Assembly: GCA_016788685.1 (NCBI GenBank)
Contig: JAEUSS010000544.1
Coordinates: 1 to 20,904 of the forward strand
From: Prolixibacteraceae bacterium
GTDB lineage: Bacteria > Bacteroidota > Bacteroidia > Bacteroidales > Prolixibacteraceae
Reading direction: 5' to 3'
Length of the DNA stretch: 20,904 nucleotides
A program made the translations under genes and the position numbers. Below, piece after piece: positions 8,912-20,646 of this stretch. A model generated the notes under the pieces. It was not told the DNA's origin and searched no databases. It saw only the letters and a list, made by a program, of their open reading frames with translations. How positions within the stretch are numbered: the stretch's first letter is position 1; the number at the start of each line of letters is the position of its first letter.

Positions 8912-9793
8912 ATGATGACCGAAATAAAGAAAGAAAAACATGTTGGACCGATTTATATTGTTTCAGGAGGAAAGGGCCTTGCGGGAAATAATATGGTTCA
9001 ATCGATGCTTATTCAATATCCGAACAACAATGTCCCGATAAATATTGTCCCGAACATCCATGAAAAGATTCAGCTGATCAAGTTGGTAGAAAAAGCAAAG
9101 CATGAGGACGGCCTGATTGCACATACGCTGGTCAATCGTGAGTTGCGGGATTTCCTGAAAGAGCTCTGCAATGAAAAGGGCGTAAGAAACATTGACTACA
9201 TGGGCGAACTGGCCGATTATCTGGACGAGAAACTTCACATTCCTTCGCTGCAGACACCCGGCCTTTACCGCGAAATTAACCAGCAGTACTTCGACCGGAT
9301 TGAGGCCATTGAATTTACCCTGAACCATGACGACGGCCTGCAACCACACCGGTTGCACAAAGCGGAGATTGTATTAATCGGCGTTTCCCGCTCGGGGAAG
9401 ACTCCTTTGAGCGTGTATCTGGCCATGTACGGATGGAAAGTTGCGAATATTCCGCTGGTGAATGGAATTCAGCCACCCAAGGAGCTGTTCGAAGTCGATC
9501 CGCAGCGGGTTTTCGGGCTTAGTATCAGTCCGGCTCAACTGATTTCGCACCGTGTAAAAAGGTTGCGCAGCCTCGGAGACACCGACAACACGAACTATGT
9601 TGACGAGCGCATGGTTTCCCAGGAGATCAGGAATGCAAATTTCATTTTTGAAAAGGGCGGATTTACTGTTGTCAATGTATCCAATAAGCCCATCGAAACC
9701 ACTGCCAATGAGATATTAAATATCATGGCCAACCGTTTTGAGTATCGTGGCAGAAGGCTAAATTCGCCTTATCCGTATGAAGCTAAAGATTAA
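8912..9793 (+). CDS. PpsR/PDRP-type regulatory kinase and pyrophosphorylase (DUF299)
   Basis: A 293-residue member of the Kinase-PPPase family (DUF299). Such proteins use ADP to phosphorylate a threonine of PEP synthase or pyruvate phosphate dikinase, switching it off, and reverse this by phosphorolysis. The P-loop is GVSRSGKTPLS (from residue 157) and is preceded by the family-defining block YFDRIEAIEFTLNHDDG (about 126-142). Further downstream, FGLSISPAQL and the RLRSLG segment also match the family. The frame extends to GTG 8843, but the extra 23 residues overlap the promoter; ATG 8912 (or the adjacent ATG 8915) is preferred. The target enzyme is not in the window; in Bacteroidota it is likely pyruvate phosphate dikinase. 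It converges on glmS with 14 bases between stops. Confidence 0.88.
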   Translation: MMTEIKKEKHVGPIYIVSGGKGLAGNNMVQSMLIQYPNNNVPINIVPNIHEKIQLIKLVEKAKHEDGLIAHTLVNRELRDFLKELCNEKGVRNIDYMGELADYLDEKLHIPSLQTPGLYREINQQYFDRIEAIEFTLNHDDGLQPHRLHKAEIVLIGVSRSGKTPLSVYLAMYGWKVANIPLVNGIQPPKELFEVDPQRVFGLSISPAQLISHRVKRLRSLGDTDNTNYVDERMVSQEIRNANFIFEKGGFTVVNVSNKPIETTANEILNIMANRFEYRGRRLNSPYPYEAKD

Positions 9794-9807
9794 TTTGGAT
9801 TCAAAGC

Positions 9808-11646
9808 TTACTCGACCGTGACTGACTTTGCCAGATTTCGTGGCTGATCTACATCGCAGCCACGCATCACCGCAATGTAATAAGCAAACAACTGCAACGG
9901 AATAACAGCAAGTAAAGGTGACACCGCCGGGTGCGACTTGGGTATTTCCAGCAAGTCGTTGACCATGTTCTTCAGCCCGTCATCGCCTTCGGTTACCACG
10001 GCAATAATGTTTCCCTTCCGGGCCTTTACTTCCTGAATGTTACTGACAATCTTTTCGTAGTATTGGTCTTTTGCTGCCACCACAATCACCGGAAGATTAT
10101 CATCAACCAAAGCAATGGCGCCGTGTTTCATTTCTCCGGCAGCAAATCCTTCAGCATGGATATACGAAATCTCTTTCAGTTTCAAAGAACCTTCCAACGC
10201 AACCGGAAACAAAAAACCTCTTCCCAGATAAAGCGCACTGAAAGCATCTTTGTATTTGGCGGCAACTTCTTTAATGTGCGGATGTTTTACCAGTATGCTT
10301 TTTACCTTTTCCGGGATTTCACTTAGTTCGGATATCAGCGTTGCATAAAATTCAGGAGAAATACGGCCTTTTTCTTTGGCAAGTTTAAGTGCAAAAAGTG
10401 TGATGACCGTAACCTGTGCTGTAAACGCCTTAGTCGAGGCCACACCGATTTCAACTCCGGCGTGTGTATAAACACCGGCATCCGTTTCGCGGGCAATGCT
10501 CGACCCTACCACGTTACAAATACCAAGAATGGTAGCCCCCTGTTCTTTGGCCATGCGCAAAGCCGCCAGGGTATCGGCAGTCTCACCACTCTGACTGATG
10601 GCAATAACTACATCATCGGAAGTTAACACCGGATTGCGGTAACGGAATTCCGATGCGTATTCCACTTCAACCGGAATACGGGCATATTCCTCAATCAGGT
10701 ACTCTCCAACCAGGGCGGCATGCCAGGATGTTCCGCACCCGATAAAGATGATTCGTTTGGCATTCATGATTTTGGGGAAAATATCCAGCAGACCACCCAG
10801 AACAATATCGGTATGGTCCGGGGTAATCCGCCCTCTAAAGGTATCTTCGATAGTCTTGGGTTGCTCGAAAATCTCTTTCAGCATAAAATGCTCAAAATCC
10901 CCTTTTTCCAGATCGCCAATGCTCATATCCACTTTCGTGATCTTGAACGCCACCGGATTGTTTTCCACTGTTTTCAGTGTCAGGCTGTCCTTGTTGATAA
11001 TGGCAACATCATGATCATTCAGGTAAATAACACTGTCGGTATAACTGATAATGGGTGTTGCATCTGAGGCAACAAAATATTCGCCTCTGCCAATTCCGAT
11101 CACCAAAGGACTTCCCTTGCGGGCCGCTATCAGCTGATTTTTTTCGTCTTTACAGATTACAACAATTCCGAAAGCGCCAACAACTTTTGAAAGCGCCAGC
11201 CGAACAGCAATCTCAGCATTGACACCTTCTGCATTTTCATAGAAATATTCGATCAGGTTAACCAGAACTTCGGTATCGGTATCCGATTGAAACGTGTATC
11301 CTTTCTTCAGAAGGTCAGATTTTAACTCAGCATAATTTTCGATAATTCCGTTATGAACCAGCACAAAGTGCCCGGCCATAGAAGTATGCGGATGTGCATT
11401 GCGGTCGTTTGGTTCTCCGTGGGTTGCCCATCGTGTATGTCCGATTCCGATGTGTCCGCTGATGTCTTCAGCAGCCACATGTTTTTCCAGATCAGCTACC
11501 CGGCCTTTGCATTTATACACTTTCAGTGAACTGTTGTATATGGCCATTCCTGCCGAATCGTAACCACGATATTCCAGACGCTGAAGCCCTTGAATCAAAA
11601 TGGGATAAACATTTTTATCGCCAATGTAACCTACAATTCCACACAT
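9808..11646 (-). CDS. glmS: Glutamine--fructose-6-phosphate aminotransferase (isomerizing)
   Basis: GlmS makes glucosamine-6-phosphate from fructose-6-phosphate and glutamine, the first committed step to UDP-GlcNAc for peptidoglycan and lipid A. The 612-residue length is standard. The N-terminal MCGIVGYIG supplies the glutaminase nucleophile Cys (residue 2), with HTRWATHG and HNGIIENY following. Two SIS sugar-isomerase domains occupy the second half: GCGTSWHA and SQSGETADT in the first, and AEGFAAGEMKHG in the second. The protein ends with the invariant DQPRNLAKSVTVE. It is the last gene after the half-GT5 gene and the DUF4270 gene, 43 bases after the latter. I see no glmS-type ribozyme upstream, as expected outside Firmicutes. 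It opposes nagA/nagB metabolically. Confidence 0.98.
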   Translation of the reverse strand: MCGIVGYIGDKNVYPILIQGLQRLEYRGYDSAGMAIYNSSLKVYKCKGRVADLEKHVAAEDISGHIGIGHTRWATHGEPNDRNAHPHTSMAGHFVLVHNGIIENYAELKSDLLKKGYTFQSDTDTEVLVNLIEYFYENAEGVNAEIAVRLALSKVVGAFGIVVICKDEKNQLIAARKGSPLVIGIGRGEYFVASDATPIISYTDSVIYLNDHDVAIINKDSLTLKTVENNPVAFKITKVDMSIGDLEKGDFEHFMLKEIFEQPKTIEDTFRGRITPDHTDIVLGGLLDIFPKIMNAKRIIFIGCGTSWHAALVGEYLIEEYARIPVEVEYASEFRYRNPVLTSDDVVIAISQSGETADTLAALRMAKEQGATILGICNVVGSSIARETDAGVYTHAGVEIGVASTKAFTAQVTVITLFALKLAKEKGRISPEFYATLISELSEIPEKVKSILVKHPHIKEVAAKYKDAFSALYLGRGFLFPVALEGSLKLKEISYIHAEGFAAGEMKHGAIALVDDNLPVIVVAAKDQYYEKIVSNIQEVKARKGNIIAVVTEGDDGLKNMVNDLLEIPKSHPAVSPLLAVIPLQLFAYYIAVMRGCDVDQPRNLAKSVTVE

Positions 11647-18443: not shown

Positions 18444-19811
18444 ATGGCCAAACTTAAAACCAGTTTCTTCTGCCAGAATTGCGGAGCTCAGTCGCCTAAA
18501 TGGGTAGGGAAATGCAACTCGTGCGGCGAATGGAATTCGTTTGTGGAAGAAGTTGTGGAACGCGAAGGCCCTAAGATTGCTTCCTTCCTGACCGGAAGCG
18601 GCAATCAGCCCAAACTTTTGCACGAAGTTTCTTCGGAAAACACCCAGCGGATCGACACCTGCAACCAGGAACTTAACCGGGTTTTAGGCGGCGGGCTGGT
18701 TCCCGGATCAATGGTACTGATTGGCGGAGAACCCGGAATCGGTAAATCAACGCTGGTCCTGCAACTGGCTTTAGACCTGAAAAACAAAAAGATACTGTAC
18801 GTTTCCGGAGAAGAAAGCATACAGCAGATTAAAATCAGGGCACAACGGCTGCAGAAAGAAAACCAAAACTGCTATTTCCTGAGCGAAACCTCGCTGGAGC
18901 ATATCCTGGCACAAAGCAAACAGGTTGTTCCAGATTTACTGATCATCGACTCCATTCAAACCGTTTCTACCGAGTCGATCGAATCATCGCCCGGATCGGT
19001 GGGGCAAATCCGCGAATGTACGAACGGCATTCTGAAATACGCCAAAGAAAACATGGTTCCGGTTATTCTCATTGGGCACATCACCAAGGAGGGTTCACTG
19101 GCCGGGCCTAAAGTACTGGAACACATTGTCGATACTGTTCTGCAGTTCGAAGGTGAGAACCAGTATATGTACCGCATCCTGCGCGCCATCAAAAACCGTT
19201 TTGGCTCAACTTCCGAACTCGGAATTTTTGAGATGGGCAATTCGGGCCTGCGCGAAGTTTCCAATCCGTCAGAATTGTTGATCAACCGGGCTCACGAAGG
19301 ACTGAGCGGCACCGCCATTGCCGCGGCTATCGAAGGCATCCGCCCTTTACTGATTGAAATTCAGGCGCTGGTAAGCACCGCAGCTTACGGAACTCCGCAA
19401 CGATCGTCAACCGGATTCGATCTACGGCGACTCAACATGTTGCTGGCGGTTCTCGAAAAACGGGCTGGATTTAAGCTGGCCACCAAAGACGTTTTCCTGA
19501 ATATCGCGGGTGGAATTAAAGTCGATGATCCGGCCATCGATCTAACCGTGATCACGGCCATTCTGTCATCGAATTTCGATTTACCTATCCGAAAAAACGT
19601 CTGCTTTGCAGGCGAAGTCGGGCTTTCAGGAGAAATACGGTCGGTAAACCGGCTGGAACAACGCATTGCAGAAGCCGAAAAACTGGGCTTCGACAGCATT
19701 TTTATTCCCAAAGCCGGAAAAGGAATTAACCTTCAGAAATTTAAAATTGAAATTGTACAGTTCGACCGCGTAGAACTGTTTTTCAGGCATGTATTTGCAA
19801 AAAAAAGCTGA
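18444..19811 (+). CDS. radA: DNA repair protein RadA
   Basis: RadA is a RecA-like ATPase that promotes branch migration of recombination intermediates. The 455-residue protein has every landmark: a zinc finger (C10, C13, C24, C27), a Walker A GGEPGIGKST (94-103), LLIIDSIQ (Walker B, about 165-172), the RadA-specific KNRFG (250-254), and a Lon-like C-terminal domain containing GGIKVDDPAIDL. The stop codon TGA (19809-19811) lies inside the left arm of a hairpin terminator. A convergent cobalamin riboswitch RNA ends at the same hairpin on the other strand. Confidence 0.97.
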   Translation: MAKLKTSFFCQNCGAQSPKWVGKCNSCGEWNSFVEEVVEREGPKIASFLTGSGNQPKLLHEVSSENTQRIDTCNQELNRVLGGGLVPGSMVLIGGEPGIGKSTLVLQLALDLKNKKILYVSGEESIQQIKIRAQRLQKENQNCYFLSETSLEHILAQSKQVVPDLLIIDSIQTVSTESIESSPGSVGQIRECTNGILKYAKENMVPVILIGHITKEGSLAGPKVLEHIVDTVLQFEGENQYMYRILRAIKNRFGSTSELGIFEMGNSGLREVSNPSELLINRAHEGLSGTAIAAAIEGIRPLLIEIQALVSTAAYGTPQRSSTGFDLRRLNMLLAVLEKRAGFKLATKDVFLNIAGGIKVDDPAIDLTVITAILSSNFDLPIRKNVCFAGEVGLSGEIRSVNRLEQRIAEAEKLGFDSIFIPKAGKGINLQKFKIEIVQFDRVELFFRHVFAKKS

Positions 19812-19832
19812 GGCCCCTGACCATCAGCTTTT
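19803..19832. terminator. Bidirectional terminator built into the radA stop codon
   Basis: AAAAGCTGA (19803-19811) pairs with TCAGCTTTT (19824-19832), a 9-bp stem around a 12-base loop. The plus strand reads radA to its end and then TTTTATT. The minus strand ends in eight T (19806-19799), the stronger orientation, so it is well placed to stop RNA started at the riboswitch. The radA stop TGA forms part of the stem. Confidence 0.72.
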
Positions 19833-19913
19833 ATTACAGTTACACGGTTTCAAACTTGGCAGAAGTGAAACCTGTGAAGCCAGGGATTTTGGCTCTTACC
19901 CCGAAAGCTTCTC

Positions 19914-20098
19914 GTTGCAGGCAGGTCTTCTGGCTCTCCTGATTTTTGCCAACCTTCCCAATTGCAATTAACAATCAGTGGTTATCTCCGGCAAAACCTC
20001 CTTGCGGACATAGGATTACAGCTGCGGGGACAGCTCCTGATTTGAACAGGATTCCCTCTTCGTTCCGGATAAACGGAAACCGACAACACACTTGCAAA
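19914..20098 (-). ncRNA. Cobalamin riboswitch aptamer, no downstream gene
   Basis: Read on the minus strand, this is a clear cobalamin riboswitch: GAGGGAATCC (about 20057-20048), a TCCTG/CAGGA hairpin, the invariant AGCTGTCCCCGCAGCTGTAA, then CCACTG, GGGAAGG and the closing core AGAGCCAGAAGACCTGCCT (19937-19919). A P2-like GTTTCCG/CGGAAC arm and a closing TTGCA (20097-20093)/TGCAA (19919-19915) pair are also seen. Such switches turn down B12 uptake or synthesis genes when cobalamin is high, usually by termination or by hiding a ribosome site. Here the minus strand leads only to a terminator at 19832-19803 and then into radA antisense; no ORF longer than about 14 codons starts in between. A near -7 TACTTTTG (20102-20095) overlaps the first P1 strand, so it is doubtful as the promoter; a weaker candidate lies at 20201-20193. 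Confidence 0.93.
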
Positions 20099-20234
20099 AG
20101 TACACAGAAATTTTGTGACGGGGCTGTGCCTTACCGTTAATTAATTTGAAAGTTTACCGATCAGCAAGCTGCGACGCAATTCTTTTCCCAAACAAATTAT
20201 ATTTATTGCCCGCCGATTTATAATTTTTTCGGAT

Positions 20235-20265: not shown

Positions 20266-20646
20266 ATGAAACAACTCATTGGCATATTGCTACTTGCAGC
20301 TATTCTATCAGGACTTTCATCCTGCCTGAACACCTCTGTTGAGAAACCGGAAAAGCTCATCCCGAAAGAAAAGTTCGAGAAGATGTTGCTTGATATCTAC
20401 CTCATTCAGGGAATAACCACAGGGGCTGATGAACCTGAAACGCTGAAAAAAATTACTCAGACGGACTTGTATTTCTCGGTTCTGGCAAAATATGATGTTC
20501 CGGATACAGTCTTCATCCGTTCCTTGATTTATTACTCCAGCTTTCCGAAAGACTATGAAAAAATGCACACTCAAATCATCAATAACCTAAACGAAGCGGA
20601 GCAACAGTTTAAGCCTAAAGATAAACTGAACGAGGAACCTAAATGA
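20266..20646 (+). CDS. DUF4296 family lipoprotein
   Basis: A 126-residue lipoprotein typical of Bacteroidota; its function is unknown. The signal MKQLIGILLLAAILSGLSSC ends in the lipobox LSSC (Cys20). The family segment follows: KLIPKEKFEKMLLDIYL (about 29-45), then helices with DLYFSVLAKYDV and a YYSSFPKDYEKMH pattern. It is mostly helical and acidic towards the end, with a charged C-terminus (KPKDKLNEEPK). The stop overlaps the next start as ATGA, so the following gene is translationally coupled and may work with it. It starts divergently from the cobalamin riboswitch. Confidence 0.85.
   Translation: MKQLIGILLLAAILSGLSSCLNTSVEKPEKLIPKEKFEKMLLDIYLIQGITTGADEPETLKKITQTDLYFSVLAKYDVPDTVFIRSLIYYSSFPKDYEKMHTQIINNLNEAEQQFKPKDKLNEEPK

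What the first reader, a model, noticed from the sequence alone, without database searches (positions are those of the whole stretch)
19914..20098. Orphan cobalamin riboswitch with no gene to control
The aptamer core is nearly perfect, yet on its strand the next 80 bases hold no ORF and end in a terminator, after which lies radA in the opposite direction. A conserved aptamer without a target suggests either a riboswitch that makes a regulatory RNA by itself (as known for Rli55/EutX, which holds an antiterminator protein until B12 binds) or a leader whose B12-transport gene was lost recently. The intact core argues for recent loss or continued use.
Basis: partly seen in the sequence, partly recalled or inferred. 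Interest (0 to 1): 0.72.

Follow-up and report, generated by a model that had tools for sequence, protein, structure and literature searches.

The report
B12-sensing small RNA targeting mutA
The vitamin B12 riboswitch with no gene behind it looks like the front half of a conserved stand-alone small RNA whose back half matches the start of the mRNA for a B12-dependent enzyme, which could let cells make that enzyme only when the vitamin is there.

Summary
In detail: RF00174 matches full length at 19903-20099 (-), 101.9 bits, E 8e-25. No gene follows, only about 100 nt of RNA with a U8 terminator.

It is no recent leftover. Aptamer plus 3' module recur in 18 of 140 genomes of the family (6 of 23 genera). 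The unit always diverges from a DUF4296 gene (18 of 18), while what it faces varies (17 examined). In the window's genus the module is 93% identical, the aptamer 79%, synonymous radA sites 61%. One hairpin covaries; its loop (CUGCC) and a linker (GUAACUG) never change.

The linker's complement recurs before mutA, the small subunit of B12-dependent methylmalonyl-CoA mutase. Linker and loop both fit the mutA leader and start codon, collinearly, in 17 of 18 RNA-bearing genomes (no mutA found in the other) and in 0 of 314 other leaders. The site also survives in 18 genomes without a detected RNA, which weakens the link.

Best reading: a B12-riboswitch small RNA that represses mutA when B12 is absent. 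The RNA is well supported and the target strongly suggested; direction and switching are inferred. Nothing was measured.

The parts
20095..20102 (-). Bacteroidota-type -7 promoter element TACTTTTG (predicted)
   Evidence: TAnnWTTG at this place in 16 of 18 units; not in strict form in G005 and G472. Consensus recalled; no -33 element checked.
19903..20099 (-). Cobalamin aptamer (RF00174), including L5 (GCUGUCCCCGCAGC, about 20021-20034)
   Evidence: 101.9 bits, E 8e-25, full length; L5 identical in 18 of 18 units
19892..19908 (-). P13 hairpin; loop L13 CGGGGUA can kiss L5
   Evidence: P13 pairs hold in 14 of 14 distinct modules, one pair with two-sided changes; CGGGG in 18 of 18 units; kissing recalled for this class
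19876..19886 (-). Element A (AUCCCUGGCUUC core): pairs either with the P13/L13 strand or with the 5' side of the terminator
   Evidence: Both pairings possible in 14 of 14 distinct modules, but nearly invariant; alternative folds
19843..19876 (-). Hairpin H
   Evidence: Four stem pairs with two-sided changes
19857..19864 (-). Loop UUCUGCCA of hairpin H, complementary to UGGCAGAA at the mutA start codon
   Evidence: CUGCC invariant in 18 of 18; 7-9 bp with the own mutA start in 16 of 16
19836..19844 (-). Linker UGUAACUGU, complementary to ACAGUUACA in the mutA leader
   Evidence: GUAACUG invariant in 18 of 18; 9-13 Watson-Crick bp with the own mutA leader in 16 of 16
19799..19832 (-). Intrinsic terminator with U8; loop CAGGGG
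   Evidence: Folding; present in all aligned units; stays with the riboswitch where other DNA lies between it and radA
18444..19811 (+). radA, convergent neighbour; not the target by the evidence here
   Evidence: TIGR00416; next gene on that side in 12 of 17 units examined, other genes in 5
20266..20646 (+). DUF4296 lipoprotein-like gene, divergent neighbour of the unit
   Evidence: PF14129; same neighbour in 18 of 18 units, 16 of them by Pfam, G015 and G022 by similarity of the gene start

Best explanation
The element is a stand-alone B12-sensing small RNA of about 290 nt. It starts at its own promoter, carries a complete cobalamin aptamer, continues into a ~100-nt regulatory module and ends at its own terminator (anatomy and conservation shown by sequence; promoter and transcript inferred). 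The module displays two segments, the hairpin loop UUCUGCCA and the linker UGUAACUGU. They can pair, collinearly and antiparallel, with the leader and start codon of mutA mRNA (small subunit of methylmalonyl-CoA mutase, a B12-dependent enzyme), which would block translation (complementarity shown; binding and repression inferred). Without B12, element A pairs with the P13/L13 strand, the terminator forms and the small RNA is released to repress mutA. With B12, L5 kisses L13, P13 forms, element A is freed to pair with the terminator's 5' side, and the mature RNA is not made or not active, so mutA is translated (inferred from alternative folds and physiology).
For: Unit directly behind an RF00174 aptamer in 18 of 140 family genomes, 6 of 23 genera. 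Divergent neighbour constant in 18 of 18, far neighbour variable in 17 examined. Genus-level identity: module 93.3%, aptamer 78.7%, upstream flank 38.5% (nine genomes), synonymous radA third positions 60.5% (six genomes, 15 pairs). Structure: 97.4% of cells paired, 34 two-sided changes against 12.2 in shuffles and at most 12 when slid. Target: linker-only search in six genomes led to the mutA leader; gene is TIGR00642 best hit, full length, in 8 of 8 tested; loop complement found at the start codon without having been searched for; site intact in 16 of 16 resolved starts of RNA-bearing genomes, 17 of 18 by pattern; bipartite site in 0 of 314 other leaders. In the genus, 5 of 10 resolved RNA-minus genomes have changed the site (one-sided Fisher p 0.02, ancestry ignored). 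G008 has a decayed relic of the module and a changed site. Two exclusive folds.
Against: The mutA site is also present in 18 RNA-minus genomes of the family (14 inspected as mutA starts, 4 not), so the leader is kept where I detect no RNA. Half of the duplex covers the codons AUG GCA GAA, which RNA-minus genomes also keep (9 of 10 in the genus). TIGR00642 is above its curated cut-off in only 2 of 8 tested proteins; the other 6 fall just short (577-615 of 617 bits). Own pairs are only slightly better than swapped pairs in duplex energy (-27.0 against -26.2 kcal/mol). One of five covariation measures (further pair types, 14 against 15.9) does not exceed shuffles. The switch pairings hardly vary, and in all six full-length folds the terminator beats the antiterminator even with P13 forced, so B12 control by antitermination would have to be kinetic. 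13 of 23 genus members lack the unit. No expression or binding data.
Confidence: 0.72

Rival explanations
1. A stand-alone B12-sensing RNA with another target or mode, for example holding a protein as Rli55/EutX does; the mutA complementarity is then a coincidence of a conserved leader.
For: The mutA leader is conserved in 18 RNA-minus genomes too. Two other recurring complements lie within the first dozen codons of reading frames.
Against: Two independent invariant segments fit the same 25-nt stretch in the right order; the gene is B12-dependent; 0 of 314 other leaders have the pair.
Confidence: 0.18
2. A leftover leader of a lost B12-transport gene, on its way to decay.
For: No gene follows; 13 of 23 genus members lack the unit.
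Against: Gene-less in all 6 genera; module better conserved than the aptamer; where the unit is gone the remnant looks decayed (G008).
Confidence: 0.02
3. A B12-controlled antisense RNA to radA or a cis switch for a gene behind the terminator (such as DUF4468), as AspocR is antisense to pocR.
For: radA is the next gene on that side in 12 of 17 units; a DUF4468 gene on the riboswitch strand stands there in 3.
Against: Five units face unrelated genes (O-antigen ligase, HlyD, GcpE, glyoxalase, outer membrane efflux protein), and in six of the 12 radA cases other DNA lies in between; the terminator stays with the aptamer.
Confidence: 0.05
4. The module encodes a short peptide or a start-stop element.
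For: AUG-UAA or GUG-UAA overlaps the linker in most units.
Against: G428 has AAG-UAA there; inserts of varying length and compensatory stem changes fit structure better than coding. No formal coding test was made.
Confidence: 0.03

Closest known systems
Rli55 (Listeria; the EutX RNA of Enterococcus is recalled as its counterpart)
   Same: B12 riboswitch joined to a non-coding RNA; expression of a B12-using pathway only when B12 is present (passages of PMC8079631).
   Different: Rli55 holds the protein EutV by ANTAR elements and lies beside the eut genes it controls; here the conserved output segments match an mRNA encoded elsewhere in the genome. ANTAR motifs were not searched for.
AspocR (Listeria)
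   Same: B12 riboswitch controls an RNA that keeps B12-using genes off without B12 (passages of PMC8079631).
   Different: AspocR is antisense to its neighbour pocR; here the neighbour is not conserved and the complement is distant.
SreA/SreB (Listeria)
   Same: A terminated riboswitch RNA pairs in trans with the leader of another mRNA and blocks translation (passages of PMC8079631).
   Different: SreA senses SAM and also controls an operon in cis; here the ligand is B12 and no cis gene exists.
Ordinary Bacteroidota B12 riboswitches of the same genomes
   Same: Same aptamer and P13/L13 position.
   Different: In those read, a gene of 80 aa or more starts roughly 90-330 nt behind the B12 box and the loop-linker-terminator module is absent.

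Membership tests
Cobalamin riboswitch (RF00174) | Full-length match above the curated score | tested here: met
   101.9 bits against 31.5
Cobalamin riboswitch (RF00174) | L5-L13 kissing pair possible | tested here: met
   CCCCG in L5 and CGGGG in L13 in 18 of 18 units
Cobalamin riboswitch (RF00174) | Binds a cobalamin | not testable with these tools
   Needs in-line probing or similar
Cis-acting riboswitch | Controls the gene directly downstream | tested here: not met
   Terminator, then unrelated or convergent genes, in 14 of 17 units; a same-strand DUF4468 gene behind the terminator in 3 of 17
Trans-acting base-pairing sRNA | Own terminator, conserved unpaired segments | tested here: met
Trans-acting base-pairing sRNA | Conserved complementarity to the start region of a distant mRNA | tested here: met
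   mutA leader, 16 of 16 resolved starts; but site also in RNA-minus genomes
Trans-acting base-pairing sRNA | Expressed as a discrete RNA that represses its target | not testable with these tools
   No RNA data at hand
Rli55/EutX type | ANTAR elements that hold EutV | not tested
   The motif was not searched for
AspocR type | Antisense to a conserved neighbour gene | tested here: not met
   Far neighbour is not radA in 5 of 17 units

The most novel reading that the evidence does not exclude
A metabolite-sensing trans-acting RNA in Bacteroidota: a stand-alone cobalamin riboswitch small RNA, held at one locus in six genera, that clamps the start codon of mutA by a two-part duplex when B12 is missing and is switched off by B12 through an antiterminator. 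Cofactor supply would then gate synthesis of an enzyme that needs it, with no regulatory protein.
Probability: 0.5. Interest if true: 0.9.

Novelty: new variant of a known kind. Interest (0 to 1): 0.82.

Why it matters
Riboswitches are mostly read as switches for the next gene, and orphans are easily set aside. Here an orphan leads to a candidate RNA regulator with a named target. It bears on a question that is open in print. In the rumen Bacteroidota member Xylanibacter ruminicola, methylmalonyl-CoA mutase rises with cobalamin at RNA and protein level, the mechanism is called unknown, and riboswitches are discounted because none lies near the genes (abstract and passages of PMC11575231). A riboswitch RNA acting in trans is the kind of regulator that a nearness test cannot see. 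I found no such RNA outside the window's family, but the wider searches were insensitive. The idea is directly testable by reporter and compensatory mutation.

Tried and rejected
Recent loss and radA antisense: judged unlikely from conservation and the varying far neighbour. DUF4468 as a cis target: it stands behind the unit in 3 of 17 units, and DNA like its 3' end also follows radA in genomes of the genus without the RNA (G008, G010, G014, by similarity).

Weak R1 hits behind other riboswitches of the genus (L093-L102 and L104) proved ordinary riboswitches with a gene start roughly 130 nt on. The R1 hit in another family of the order (G283, L076) has no RF00174 match and was judged chance. 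G461 (L124) has an aptamer, a hairpin with a GCUGCCA loop and a terminator, but a gene follows; left out of the counts. R2 over 395 genomes of the class matched only the window's own genome, and R1 over 393 of the order only that and G283; few candidates per genome were scored (8 or 9 in the rows shown), so absence is weak evidence.

One search gave a capped list. Of the sites that recur in four genomes there, two lie within the first dozen codons of reading frames (a membrane protein and a HipA-like protein; names recalled) and were not pursued. Full-segment duplex energies are dominated by the stem arms of H: several of 307 background leaders score better than mutA (0 to 29, by genome), so loop and linker runs were used instead. 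The background held loci chosen for the linker pattern, so its ranks for the genus are pessimistic (8 to 10 of 285 leaders match the linker as well); one search counts the two-part site.

Prior art: searches of the open PMC library listed no paper whose title or opening lines describe such an RNA; lists were capped and subscription papers are not held. Papers seen in passages only: PMC11575231, PMC8079631, PMC7160235.

Full report
1. What is there. The window holds one listed Rfam match at E<=1: a full-length cobalamin aptamer at 20099..19903 on the minus strand (101.9 bits, E 8e-25). Behind it come 91 bases and then the stop codon of radA, which runs the other way. No ORF of 60 aa or more starts in that gap on the riboswitch strand. 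A stable hairpin with U8 closes it. A TAnnTTTG element (Bacteroidota -7 consensus, recalled) lies just upstream. The genome has two more B12 riboswitches, on another contig.

2. It recurs as a unit. The ~120 nt behind the aptamer gave full-length or near full-length DNA matches in 10 of 23 genomes of the genus; the nine other than the window's own are 89-98% identical. A covariance model of this module (R1) was run over 140 genomes of the family: 21 have a match at E<=0.01. I count 18 as true units, each with an RF00174 aptamer directly in front: 10 of 23 in the window's genus (g1), four in g15, one each in g224, g226, g221 and g13. The other three are G009 and G019 (ordinary riboswitches) and G461 (uncertain). 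A pattern scan of named genomes gave 15 stretches: ten carry the unit, two of them being the contig-end halves of one assembly; two are other B12 riboswitches without a module match; three have no aptamer.

3. It has a constant back and a changing front. Upstream, a DUF4296 gene points away from the unit in 18 of 18 (Pfam in 16; by similarity of the gene start in G015 and G022). The far side was examined in 17; the G462 contig ends there. radA follows directly in six (G000, G003, G011, G013, G034, G428). radA follows at a distance in three: G017 (about 550 bp of insert flanked by a repeated ~30-bp stretch), G036 (repeats and a DUF559 gene) and G452 (about 0.9 kb). A same-strand DUF4468 gene and then radA follow in three (G012, G015, G022; PF14730). 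Other genes follow in five: O-antigen ligase (G018), HlyD (G005), GcpE (G433), glyoxalase (G472), outer membrane efflux protein (G441) (for the rest). So radA is probably the old neighbour, but it is neither always there nor always adjacent, and the terminator stays with the riboswitch.

4. It is under selection. Among nine genus members the mean pairwise identity is 93.3% for the module, 78.7% for the aptamer core and 38.5% for the flank upstream of the promoter; for synonymous third positions of radA it is 60.5% (six genomes, 15 pairs). On 16 aligned modules (14 distinct), P13, hairpin H and the terminator are paired in 97.4% of cells. There are 34 cells with two-sided changes, against 12.2 in shuffles and at most 12 when strands are slid; one of five measures, further pair types (14 against 15.9), does not exceed the shuffles. 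Invariant in all 18, and unpaired in the model: the loop CUGCC and the linker GUAACUG. In G008, which lacks the unit, a decayed relic of the module lies between DUF4296 and DUF4468. On a radA tree the RNA-minus members of the genus fall into several separate groups.

5. The target. I searched six genomes for the linker's complement, ACAGTTACA, within 30 nt before any ATG (capped list). Three sites recurred in four genomes. Two lie within the first dozen codons of reading frames. The third is the leader of a gene beginning MAEKYNNLF: methylmalonyl-CoA mutase small subunit, TIGR00642, 629 bits in the window's genome. TIGR00642 is the best and full-length hit in 8 of 8 tested proteins, above its cut-off (617) in two and at 577-615 in six. 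The start codon region AUGGCAGAA is also the complement of the loop UUCUGCCA, which had not been searched for. The order is right for an antiparallel duplex: linker with the leader, loop with the start codon. A TAATTTTG element lies about 25-30 nt before the ATG in most, so the site probably sits in a short 5' UTR (inference). Linker duplexes are 9-13 Watson-Crick pairs (up to 15 with G-U), loop duplexes 7-9, in 16 of 16. In G011 and G017 the loop has lost pairs on one side and gained on the other. In g15 the RNA reads CUGUUAA and the leader UUAACAG.

6. How good is the target? For: the site is intact in 16 of 16 RNA-bearing genomes with a resolved start (one with a G-U) and in 17 of 18 by pattern (G015 has no mutA match). 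The two-part site occurs in 0 of 314 other leaders held, against 16 of 21 mutA leaders. In the genus, 5 of 10 RNA-minus genomes with a resolved start have changed it (one-sided Fisher p 0.02, ancestry ignored); G016 has only part of the gene, G004 no close match, and G001 was not searched for mutA. Against: the pattern also occurs in 19 RNA-minus genomes. One (G435) is not mutA, 14 are mutA starts by eye, 4 were not inspected. In genus g7 all four genomes have it, yet 11 of their 12 riboswitches, fetched, all have an ORF behind them. So the leader is older or more widely kept than the RNA I can detect. A diverged or aptamer-less RNA may exist there, or the leader has another role. The family-wide association (17 of 18 against 18 of 122, Fisher p 2e-11) ignores ancestry and genomes without mutA.

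7. The switch. Folding six modules with constraints gives two exclusive states. In one, element A pairs with the strand that makes P13 and L13, and the terminator forms; this is the lowest full-length fold in 5 of 6 (G472 prefers a related one). In the other, P13 forms and element A pairs with GGUCAGGG on the terminator's 5' side; this is the lowest fold of the unfinished transcript in 5 of 6 (G472 has the A pairing without P13). B12 stabilises L13-L5 in this class (recalled), so it should favour the second state. But in all six full-length folds the terminator still beats the antiterminator with P13 forced, so the effect would have to act during transcription. The pairings hardly vary. This step is inference. 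Lack of B12 would then give the terminated RNA and repression of mutA, which makes physiological sense.

8. Known relatives. In the passages I read (PMC8079631), Rli55 is a B12-riboswitch RNA that holds the protein EutV, AspocR is a B12-riboswitch RNA antisense to pocR, and SreA is a SAM-riboswitch RNA that pairs with prfA mRNA. The present RNA would combine the B12 input of the first two with the mRNA pairing of the third, aimed at a B12-dependent enzyme. In X. ruminicola, mutase levels rise with cobalamin by an unknown mechanism (abstract and passages of PMC11575231). In a periodontal metatranscriptome a cobalamin riboswitch lies directly upstream of the mutase large subunit in Veillonella (passage of PMC7160235), so B12 control of this enzyme in cis is plausible elsewhere.

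9. Verdict. The orphan is real, old and kept: a new variant of the riboswitch-RNA kind with a specific, testable target. Confidence by step: stand-alone conserved RNA about 0.93; mutA as target about 0.78; repression without B12 about 0.65; control by termination about 0.45.

Noticed in passing
L035 (G017), between radA and the unit: About 550 bp of inserted DNA flanked by a repeat of about 30 bp that includes the radA end and the start of the terminator; looks like a target-site or recombination duplication.
   Followed up: partly
L124 1307-1640 (G461, genus g12): B12 aptamer, a hairpin with a GCUGCCA loop and a U8 terminator, followed on the same strand by a 394-aa lipoprotein-like ORF; may be a cis cousin of the RNA or a coincidence.
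   Followed up: partly
L103 797-871 (G008): Decayed relic of the 3' module without an aptamer, between DUF4296 and DUF4468.
   Followed up: partly
G000:C366:5857-6060 and 9715-9917 (L003, L002): The window's genome has two more B12 riboswitches about 3.7 kb apart on one contig; their genes were not identified.
   Followed up: no
L093-L102, L104: A second, ordinary B12 riboswitch type in the genus stands before a conserved secreted-looking protein; its own leader has a hairpin that weakly matches model R1.
   Followed up: no
mutA leaders of RNA-minus genera (L217, L220, L221, L226-L229, L231, L232): The mutA leader with ACAGTTACA before ATGGCAGA is kept where no RNA was detected; a hidden RNA or a second role of the leader is possible.
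   Followed up: partly
L244 (G430): B12 riboswitch before an ORF that looks like a ribonucleotide reductase (name from recall).
   Followed up: no
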